Shown here piece by piece: positions 49,651 to 51,573 of a stretch of 64,000 bases of DNA. Both the position numbers and the translations under genes were made by a program. Each line of letters opens with the position of its first letter. The stretch's first letter is position 1. Source of the stretch: Haloferax sp. Q22 (GTDB taxonomy: Archaea; Halobacteriota; Halobacteria; Halobacteriales; Haloferacaceae); assembly GCF_001482285.1 (NCBI RefSeq), contig NZ_LOEP01000022.1, positions 62,001 through 126,000 on the forward strand, read 5' to 3'. Under the pieces are notes generated by a model. It had not been told where the DNA came from, searched no databases, and saw nothing but the letters and a program-made list of their open reading frames with translations.

Positions 49651-49678
49651 CTCCTATTTTTCTTCGAGGAGAGAATTT

Positions 49679-49708
49679 CGCCGTTTACGGCGGGAGTGAA
49701 TCCGACAC
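49679..49708 (+). repeat. Right-end-like hairpin upstream of tnpB
   Basis: CGCCG-TTTA-CGGCG (49679-49692) is a perfect 5-bp hairpin followed by GGAGTGAATCCGACAC. It resembles the hairpin and tail at the far end of the element (CCCCGT/ACGGGG with the loop CGTTTACC, then AGGATGTCAC). It could belong to the left end of this element or be the remains of an older TnpB element's right end. Confidence 0.4.
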
Positions 49709-49753
49709 TTCCTACGCAGTCCACCGTCGATGGCAGGCTGGATATTCCACGCC

Positions 49754-49794
49754 AATCCGTAGGATTAAGTAAATCTTCCTACATAGGCTATGTA
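49754..49794 (+). promoter_or_regulatory. Promoter and twin palindromes of tnpB
   Basis: The TATA-like box ATTAAGTAAA (about 49764-49773) lies 26 nt before the tnpB ATG. A perfect palindrome AATCC-GTA-GGATT (49754-49766) abuts the box. A second, TACATA-GGC-TATGTA (49780-49794), spans the expected transcription start and the A of the ATG. Both may be left-end hairpins or sites by which tnpB expression is held down. Confidence 0.55.
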
Positions 49795-51044
49795 TGGCGA
49801 TTCAGGTCACTCGTACCTACGTTGGTTCCATCCAGAACCACCAACAGGTCTGCGATGGCCTCGACTCGCTCGGAGATTCTGCCTCGAAAATCTGGAACGT
49901 CGCACGATGGACAGCAGACCGCGTGTGGGACGAGGTTGGCAAAATCCCAAACGAAGGTTCGCTCAAATCGTACATGAAGAACCAAGCGTGCTGGAAAGAT
50001 TTGAACGCACAATCCAGTCAGAAAGTCATCGAAGAACTTTCTGACGCTTTCCAGTCATGGTTCGACCTGCGACGCAAAGACTCGAAGGCGAATCCGCCCG
50101 GCTACCGAAAAAACGGCGACAAACGGCCACGTTCCACGGTCACGTTCAAAGCAGACGGGTTCAAACACGACCCCGAGAACAATCGGGTTCGACTCAGCAA
50201 AGGCTCGAACCTCAAAGAGCATTTCTCGGACTTCATCCTCTGTGAGTACCAGACTAGCCCGGACGTTGACCTCTCGGAAGTCGAATCGGTGCAGAACGTT
50301 CGCGCCGTCTGGAACGGCGACGAATGGGAACTGCACTTCGTTTGCAAAGTCAATCTCGAAACCAACGACTCAGCAGGTGACAAGGTGGCCGGAATCGACC
50401 TCGGCATCAAAAACATCGCCACGGTCGCTTTCTCCGATGAGTACGTTCTCTACCCCGGCAACTCGCTCAAACAGGACAAGCACTACTTCACGCGTACTGA
50501 GTACGACACAGAAGGTGAGAATGGCCCGTCCGAGAGGTCAATGTGGGCACGTCGGAAACTCGCAGAGCGCGAAACGCACTTCTACCACACACTGACGGAC
50601 ACTATCATCACAGAGTGTGCCGAGCGCGGTGTTGGTACGCTTGCAGTGAGCTGGCCTGAAGACGTTCGTGACTCTGACTGGGGCAAGACTGGCAACAAGA
50701 AGTTGCATACGTGGGCGTTCGACCGCATCTACCAGTACCTCGAATACAAAGGCAAGATTCGTGGCGTTGAGGTGCTGAAAGAGAACGAGTGGGACACCTC
50801 GAAGACGTGTTCACGGTGTGGAGACGACACGAAAGGGAACCGGAAACATCGTGGGTTGTACGTCTGCTCGTCGTGTGGGTTGGTCGGAAACGCGGATTGC
50901 AACGGGGCGGAGAATATGCGTCAGAAGATAACTCCGAGTCCTCACAGTGAGGATAGGTGTAACGGCTGTGTGGCACAGCCATCGGTACACCTGTTCGACT
51001 CAGAGAGTGGTTGCTTTGCACCGCGAGAACAGGTCGTGTCGTAG
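49794..51044 (+). CDS. tnpB: RNA-guided endonuclease TnpB
   Basis: A 416-residue TnpB of the OrfB/IS1341 family, ancestor-type of Cas12. The RuvC residues are Asp202 (GIDLGIKNIAT), Glu289 (WPEDVR) and Asp368 (NADCNGAENM), all present. The zinc ribbon has CSRCGDD and CSSCG before the last RuvC motif. The N-terminal helical part is acidic for the family. It should cut DNA at a target-adjacent motif under guidance of an RNA from the element's 3' end, and so keep the element in the population. The frame is intact with no stops. The last 35 codons overlap the predicted guide RNA. Confidence 0.93.
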   Translation: MAIQVTRTYVGSIQNHQQVCDGLDSLGDSASKIWNVARWTADRVWDEVGKIPNEGSLKSYMKNQACWKDLNAQSSQKVIEELSDAFQSWFDLRRKDSKANPPGYRKNGDKRPRSTVTFKADGFKHDPENNRVRLSKGSNLKEHFSDFILCEYQTSPDVDLSEVESVQNVRAVWNGDEWELHFVCKVNLETNDSAGDKVAGIDLGIKNIATVAFSDEYVLYPGNSLKQDKHYFTRTEYDTEGENGPSERSMWARRKLAERETHFYHTLTDTIITECAERGVGTLAVSWPEDVRDSDWGKTGNKKLHTWAFDRIYQYLEYKGKIRGVEVLKENEWDTSKTCSRCGDDTKGNRKHRGLYVCSSCGLVGNADCNGAENMRQKITPSPHSEDRCNGCVAQPSVHLFDSESGCFAPREQVVS

Positions 51045-51105
51045 ACCAGCAAATATCCCACCTGCGGTACGGGAAGCCCCGTCGTTTACCACGGGGAGGA
51101 TGTCA
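50939..51105 (+). ncRNA. Predicted TnpB guide RNA (reRNA/omega RNA) scaffold
   Basis: Three stems lie in a row on the tnpB strand. The first is TCCTC/GAGGA with the loop ACAGT (50939-50953). The second is nested: AGGTGTA (50955-50961) pairs with TACACCT (50986-50992), enclosing GGCTGTG (50964-50970) and CACAGCC (50974-50980) with loop TGG. The third is CCCCGT/ACGGGG (51077-51096) at the right end. Two of them fall in the tnpB coding end. TnpB guide RNAs are known to cover the 3' part of tnpB and the right end, with the guide lying just beyond it. Here the guide would start near 51106. Confidence 0.65.
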
Positions 51106-51573
51106 CTTCTCAACGTCCGACGGCTCTCTCGTCAGGTCGTAGGTGTAGTGTCGCGGCTTGCGGTCGCGGAGCCAGTCGCGGAGCGGTTCGACCCGCGGGC
51201 GGTAGGTGAGCGTCGACCCGAGGGCGGTCAGCGGGAGGAACTTCGCCGCCTCGATTTCGTTGTCGGGGTCGCTCGGCGACGGCGTCGGGTCGTCGGCGAC
51301 GGGCGTCGCGTGGTAGAACCGCTGGAGATAGATGCGGCGGTCCGGGGCGCGAATCTCGCTCGTGAAGGCGAGCGACTGGATTTCGACTTCGACGCCGGTC
51401 TCCTCTGCGGCCTCGCGGGCGGCCGTCTCGAAGAAGAACTCCCCGGGTTCGGAGCCGCCTTTCGGTAGTCCCCAGCGGTCCTTCTCGTAGACCGCGAGCA
51501 CGGAGTTCTCCTGTAGGACGACGACGCCGGCGGCCAGGTCGTGCGGGGCGGGGGCTTCTCTCGGCGTGGACAT
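51103..51573 (-). CDS. Nudix hydrolase
   Basis: A 156-residue Nudix protein. The Nudix box GGSEPGEFFFETAAREAAEETGVEVE is at about residues 39-64 and fits GX5EX7REUXEEXGU, with Glu metal ligands. The preceding KDRWGLPKG is typical. It hydrolyses a nucleoside diphosphate linked to some group; the substrate is unknown. Its ATG overlaps the arginase stop by one base (TGATG). Its stop codon (51103-51105) lies in the tail of the TnpB element, so the C-terminus (SDVEK) may have been changed by the insertion. Confidence 0.9.
   Translation of the reverse strand: MSTPREAPAPHDLAAGVVVLQENSVLAVYEKDRWGLPKGGSEPGEFFFETAAREAAEETGVEVEIQSLAFTSEIRAPDRRIYLQRFYHATPVADDPTPSPSDPDNEIEAAKFLPLTALGSTLTYRPRVEPLRDWLRDRKPRHYTYDLTREPSDVEK

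What the first reader, a model, noticed from the sequence alone, without database searches (positions are those of the whole stretch)
50939..51105. Guide-RNA scaffold hidden in the 3' coding end of tnpB
Two perfect stems (AGGTGTA/TACACCT enclosing GGCTGTG/CACAGCC) and a third TCCTC/GAGGA stem lie inside the last codons of the intact tnpB, and a CCCCGT/ACGGGG stem marks the element end. Such a density of exact pairing in coding DNA is unlikely by chance. It fits the reRNA/omega RNA known for TnpB, with all three RuvC acidic residues kept, so this may be an active RNA-guided nuclease of a halophile, working at molar salt.
Basis: partly seen in the sequence, partly recalled or inferred. Interest (0 to 1): 0.75.

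Follow-up and report, generated by a model that had tools for sequence, protein, structure and literature searches.

The report
Known TnpB guide-RNA gene in haloarchaea
The hairpins at the end of this transposon gene are the scaffold of the guide RNA that TnpB enzymes carry; this salt-loving microbe's copy belongs to an RNA family already catalogued in its relatives, so it is ordinary in kind, but the comparison corrects the proposed fold and fixes the element's ends, target motif and guide.

Summary
It matches Rfam RF02656 (sot0042, 94.8 bits), a family reported as RNA processed from tnpB transcripts in Halobacterium and Haloferax volcanii: a new member of a known kind.

Independent support: synonymous diversity falls about fourfold over codons 378-402 (P about 4e-9); hairpin 1 and the right-end hairpin covary (0 of 5000 permutations as good); and the loop of hairpin 2 pairs with the last six bases of the element, the outermost pair occurring as G-C, U-A and A-U in matched combinations.

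The canonical RuvC-II glutamate is a serine (S286); the conserved acid is E332, a known alternative position.

Close relatives without the element place it at 49658-51106, inserted after CTAT (predicted TAM), with the guide starting at 51107. It carries no tnpA. Expression and nuclease activity of this copy are untested.

The parts
49654..49657 (+). CTAT, insertion site and predicted TAM, left flank of the element
   Evidence: empty site in seven relatives of the genus reads CTAT joined directly to the right flank; CTAT in 67 of 72 related copies
49658..51106 (+). whole tnpB-only IS200/IS605-type (IS1341-like) element, 1449 bp (left breakpoint uncertain by up to two T)
   Evidence: comparison with empty sites; conservation stops after GTCAC in all related copies
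49794..51044 (+). tnpB, 416 aa; RuvC residues D202, E332 (alternative position), D368; canonical Glu position is S286; zinc ribbon
50926..51106 (+). omegaRNA (reRNA) scaffold, RF02656 sot0042 (model match 50926-51097)
   Evidence: synonymous diversity drop at codons 378-402
50931..50960 (+). helix P1, ACTCC (50931-50935) with GGTGT (50956-50960); GGAGT in nearly all relatives, so this copy has a T.T mismatch
   Evidence: Rfam structure
50939..50953 (+). hairpin 1, TCCTCA/TGAGGA
   Evidence: covaries, 0 of 5000 permutations
50964..50980 (+). hairpin 2, GGCTG/CAGCC with loop TGTGGCA
50970..50975 (+). 5' strand of the pseudoknot (GTGGCA), includes first base of tnpB codon 393
   Evidence: covaries with 51101-51106
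50990..51033 (+). hairpin 3, CCTGTTC (50990-50996) with GAACAGG (51027-51033)
   Evidence: all seven pairs in 91 of 104 copies; Rfam structure
51077..51096 (+). right-end hairpin CCCCGTCG/CCACGGGG, loop TTTA, one C.C mismatch here
   Evidence: covaries, 0 of 5000 permutations
51101..51106 (+). element terminus TGTCAC, 3' strand of the pseudoknot
51107..51126 (+). predicted guide (first 16-20 nt of the flank): TTCTCAACGTCCGACGGCTC
   Evidence: variable from this base on in all copies; empty site in relatives; guide length by analogy with ISDra2 (PMC8612924)

Best explanation
This is the omegaRNA (reRNA) gene of a tnpB-only IS200/IS605-type element, a member of the haloarchaeal sot0042 family. 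The 3' part of the tnpB transcript is processed to a scaffold of about 180 nt plus 16-20 nt of flanking sequence as guide. TnpB binds it, recognises CTAT followed by a match to the guide, and cuts with a RuvC site whose glutamate sits in the alternative position. The natural target is the same locus on a chromosome copy that lacks the element; the occupied locus is spared because GTCAC, not CTAT, precedes the guide match. Repair from an occupied copy would restore the element. Shown here: family membership, element ends, selection on the RNA sequence, covariation, intact protein. Inferred: transcription, processing and cutting in this organism.
For: RF02656 match 94.8 bits over the gathering score. 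Fourfold drop of synonymous diversity exactly where the RNA starts. Covariation of hairpin 1, right-end hairpin and pseudoknot. Empty sites in close relatives fix ends, CTAT and guide start. Protein matches guided_TnpB, with D202, E332 and D368 invariant in 65 of 65 relatives. Same RNA family shown as processed tnpB transcripts in H. salinarum and Hfx. volcanii (PMC8303175) and equated with omegaRNA (PMC12558985). TnpB-reRNA mechanism shown for ISDra2 (PMC8612924).
Against: No RNA data for this strain. No activity data for any TnpB of this clade were found in the papers searched. This copy carries a mismatch in helix P1 and one in the right-end hairpin. No usable structure model to confirm that E332 is in the active site.
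Confidence: 0.9

Rival explanations
1. The structures act in single-stranded DNA: they are the right-end hairpin and cleavage-site signals for a Y1 transposase (TnpA) supplied in trans, and the terminal covariation reflects DNA, not RNA.
For: IS200/IS605 elements need such end hairpins (established knowledge). The element moves (empty sites), carries no tnpA, and three Y1 transposases exist elsewhere in the genome. The right-end hairpin and terminus would serve both roles.
Against: It does not explain hairpins 1-3 and the synonymous constraint far inside the gene, the pairing of the terminus with a loop 130 nt away in the coding region, or the processed RNA seen for the family (PMC8303175).
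Confidence: 0.05
2. The RNA is made, but TnpB here no longer cuts: it is a nuclease-dead, RNA-guided repressor or a relic.
For: The canonical RuvC-II Glu is Ser286; this copy has mismatches in P1 and the right-end hairpin.
Against: D202, E332 and D368 are all kept and invariant, in the alternative arrangement known from other TnpBs and Fanzors (PMC10711439). The element inserted recently: relatives up to 99% identical in the flank lack it.
Confidence: 0.08
3. The stems are a chance by-product of codon choice and have no function.
Against: Rfam match, suppressed synonymous change and covariation.
Confidence: 0.01

Closest known systems
sot0042 RNA family (Rfam RF02656) of Halobacterium salinarum and Haloferax volcanii, now called omegaRNA (PMC8303175, PMC12558985)
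   Same: Covariance-model match over the curated cut-off across the whole model, same place at the 3' end of tnpB, same strand, same right-end hairpin and loop-to-end pseudoknot
   Different: This clade ends in GTCAC (most high-scoring RF02656 members fetched end in GTCAA) and inserts after CTAT (those mostly after TTAC); the pseudoknot pair changes accordingly
ISDra2 TnpB-reRNA of Deinococcus radiodurans (PMC8612924, PMC10097598)
   Same: RuvC TnpB with an RNA from the 3' end of tnpB plus right end, guide from the flank, target site equal to TAM, pseudoknot before the guide
   Different: TAM CTAT instead of TTGAT; RuvC-II Glu in the alternative position; last two scaffold bases Watson-Crick paired here, non-canonical or unpaired in ISDra2; no tnpA in the element
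TnpBs and Fanzors with alternative RuvC-II glutamate (PMC10711439)
   Same: E followed by six residues and the zinc-ribbon CxxC; canonical position not acidic
   Different: RuvC-I motif is DLG here, not the DPG of Fanzors; IS200/IS605-type, not IS607

Membership tests
RF02656 (sot0042) | Covariance-model score above the gathering score over the full model | tested here: met
   94.8 bits against 88, model positions 1-174 of 174
RF02656 (sot0042) | Transcribed or processed RNA from the sense strand of tnpB | not testable with these tools
   no RNA data for this strain; shown for relatives (PMC8303175)
TnpB omegaRNA / reRNA | Overlaps 3' end of tnpB and the right end, ends at the element boundary | tested here: met
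TnpB omegaRNA / reRNA | Conserved structure with compensatory changes, including the pseudoknot before the guide | tested here: met
TnpB omegaRNA / reRNA | Binds TnpB and guides cleavage next to a TAM | not testable with these tools
   CTAT predicted from insertion sites only
TnpB nuclease (guided_TnpB, NF040570) | Curated model score | tested here: met
   182.8 bits against cut-off 100
TnpB nuclease (guided_TnpB, NF040570) | RuvC triad D-E-D in canonical positions | tested here: not met
   canonical Glu is Ser286; the acid is at E332, the known alternative position, which many members have
TnpB nuclease (guided_TnpB, NF040570) | E332 lies in the active site in three dimensions | tested here: inconclusive
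   AlphaFold2 on a shallow alignment gave mean pLDDT 41.5, unusable
IS200/IS605-type element | Insertion 3' of a fixed short target without duplication, end hairpins | tested here: met
   CTAT, empty sites; end hairpins
IS200/IS605-type element | Carries a Y1 transposase gene | tested here: not met
   none in the element or linked to relatives; the tnpB-only IS1341 group lacks it by definition (established knowledge)

The most novel reading that the evidence does not exclude
In this haloarchaeal family the omegaRNA pseudoknot runs one Watson-Crick pair further than in ISDra2, to the base touching the guide, so that the last base of the transposon, a base of tnpB codon 393 and that residue's identity (Val, Leu or Met) must change together. 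The element's end signal would then be locked to its own coding sequence.
Probability: 0.6. Interest if true: 0.45.

Novelty: new member of a known kind. Interest (0 to 1): 0.3.

Why it matters
It turns a sequence impression into a testable guide RNA with defined ends, predicted TAM, guide and fold, in a group of archaea that can be grown and manipulated genetically. It shows that the conserved structure is not the one most visible to the eye in this copy, and it gives a clear compensatory-mutation test (loop base against element end) and an active-site test (E332). As many haloarchaea carry several chromosome copies (general knowledge), they are a good place to test whether TnpB restores its element by cutting empty copies.

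Tried and rejected
Folding energy against synonymous-codon shuffles as proof of structure: too weak. Inner stem as 7 bp: two of its pairs are not kept in the wider family, whose loop is GTTGGCA. AlphaFold2 model of TnpB: too poor to place E332, so no fold search was made. Tree of TnpB to count switches of the pseudoknot pair: 8 changes, but some rows were wrong reading frames with very long branches, so only the general result is used. Prediction that loops with C would go with a GTCAG end: failed; most of those elements end in GGTCAC and gain a C-G pair at the other end of the pseudoknot while the outer pair is C.C, and a few are plain exceptions. Search for another target of the guide in the genome: the three two-mismatch matches whose flanks were read lack CTAT; a fourth and the three-mismatch matches were not checked. 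The original sotRNA paper (PMC4615843) is not held.

Full report
WHAT WAS CLAIMED.

THE OBSERVATION. The stems are there at the stated positions, and tnpB (49794-51044, 416 aa) is intact. The density of pairing is not by itself remarkable: against shuffles that keep the protein and codon usage, the coding part of the scaffold folds only slightly better than expected (z = -1.8, 5 of 100 shuffles as low), and other windows of the same gene reach z = -2 to -3. Evidence had to come from elsewhere.

IT IS A KNOWN RNA FAMILY. An Rfam scan of the whole window gives a single match: RF02656, sot0042, 50926-51097, plus strand, 94.8 bits, gathering score 88. The genome holds five matches above the cut-off, and 94 of 116 genomes of the class have at least one match at E 0.001 or better. 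These sense overlapping transcripts were found in Halobacterium salinarum; dRNA-seq shows that they are processed from larger tnpB transcripts in H. salinarum and, for the sot0042 member in HVO_2075, in Haloferax volcanii (PMC8303175). [quoted passage not shown]

SELECTION ON THE RNA WITHIN THE GENE. Among 65 full-length relatives (about 84-91% amino-acid identity), synonymous diversity is 0.31 over codons 1-377 and 0.08 over codons 378-402 (Mann-Whitney P = 3.7e-9). The lowest 25-codon stretch of the gene begins at codon 377, where the RNA model begins.

COVARIATION. Hairpin 1 (inside the gene) has 38 distinct versions of 15 or 21 nt that enter the arm-swap test; own arms pair better than in any of 5000 permutations. 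The right-end hairpin has 32 versions, with 7.6 of 8 pairs on average against 6.4 for swapped arms, again 0 of 5000. These permutations ignore relatedness. Hairpin 2 (GGCTG/CAGCC) appears as GGTCG/CGGCC or GGCCG/CGGCC in five copies. Some relatives carry in-frame insertions of 54-60 nt in the loop of hairpin 2, or extra hairpins in the right-end hairpin, which themselves keep pairing with changed sequence.

THE PSEUDOKNOT. The loop of hairpin 2, GTGGCA (50970-50975), is complementary to the last six bases of the element, TGTCAC (51101-51106), with one G.U. Over 157 distinct copies the outer pair is G-C in 75, U-A in 53 and A-U in 14; it is Watson-Crick in 142, against a mean of 62 with shuffled labels. 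Thirty of the loci searched were fetched with a pattern that selects A or C in the loop, which is why exceptions with C appear; in the set taken without that pattern only L012 and L183 break the rule. In ten copies with a C.C outer pair the inner pair has changed from A-U to C-G. Labels on a tree of TnpB proteins need 8 changes, but some rows are misread and several branches are weak, so I claim only that there was more than one switch. In ISDra2 the last scaffold base is unpaired and the one before it pairs non-canonically (PMC10097598); here both are Watson-Crick. The loop base is the first base of codon 393, so that Val, Leu or Met there follows the RNA pair.

The outer stem AGGTGTA/TACACCT is perfect in this copy only (1 of 104), and swapped arms pair as well (1606 of 2000 permutations). 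The conserved helix is ACTCC/GGAGT around hairpin 1, in line with the Rfam structure; the window has GGTGT, which breaks one pair of it and creates the striking outer stem. The arm TACACCT also overlaps the conserved hairpin 3, CCTGTTC/GAACAGG, which keeps all seven pairs in 91 of 104 copies.

THE PROTEIN. It matches guided_TnpB. The position of the canonical RuvC-II glutamate is S286, aligned with the Glu of MEDL in Cas12f structures. E332 lies exactly six residues before the first cysteine of the zinc ribbon and is invariant in 65 of 65, as are D202 and D368. That is the alternative-glutamate arrangement described for some TnpBs and Fanzors (PMC10711439). A predicted structure was too poor to check it.

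ENDS, TARGET AND GUIDE. Seven relatives of the genus whose right flank is 95-99% identical lack the element and read CTAT joined directly to TTCTC(C/T/G)ACGTCCGA; the window reads CTAT-element-TTCTCAACGTCCGACGG. So the element is 49658-51106 (left breakpoint uncertain by up to two T), inserted after CTAT without duplication. CTAT is found in 67 of 72 related copies. By analogy with ISDra2, where target site and TAM coincide and the last about 16 nt of the reRNA come from the flank (PMC8612924), CTAT is the predicted TAM and the guide begins at 51107. At the occupied site GTCAC replaces CTAT, which would spare it. The insertion lies between two convergent genes and replaces the stop codon of the right-hand one (TAG in the empty site, TGA here) without changing the encoded end. 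No tnpA lies in the element or is linked to its relatives; three Y1 transposases are found elsewhere in the genome.

VERDICT. A new member of a known kind, well supported as an omegaRNA gene; expression, processing and cutting in this organism remain inferred. The details that I did not find in the papers read are the three-state covariation that ties the transposon's last base to tnpB codon 393, the CTAT target of this clade, and the correction of the fold.

Noticed in passing
L030, L046, L056, L064 (loop of hairpin 2): In-frame insertions of 54-60 nt inside tnpB, in the loop of hairpin 2, that form their own hairpins; the paired segments differ in sequence between L030 and the others yet still pair.
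   Followed up: partly
L021, L022, L034, L041, L047, L055, L057, L064, L074 (right-end hairpin): The right-end hairpin is lengthened by about 46 nt with two further hairpins whose stems vary but keep pairing.
   Followed up: no
51100-51106, 51103-51105 (- strand): The inserted element supplies the stop codon of the convergent NUDIX-like gene: TAG in the empty site of relatives, TGA here, with the same last residues.
   Followed up: partly
own genome, e.g. L001-L004, L086-L097: The genome holds 19 TnpB-like matches of several distant groups and three Y1 transposases; two of the Y1 genes sit beside distant TnpBs, not this clade.
   Followed up: no
L196, L197, L199, L203, L204, L208: A group of elements ending in GGAGGTCAC (three bases shorter than GGAGGATGTCAC) with loop CTGGCC: the pseudoknot has lost its outer pair and gained a C-G pair at the other end.
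   Followed up: partly
L125-L154 (left ends) against L007-L085: RF02656 elements ending in GTCAA mostly follow TTAC, while those ending in GTCAC or GTCAT mostly follow CTAT, which suggests a change of target motif between clades.
   Followed up: partly
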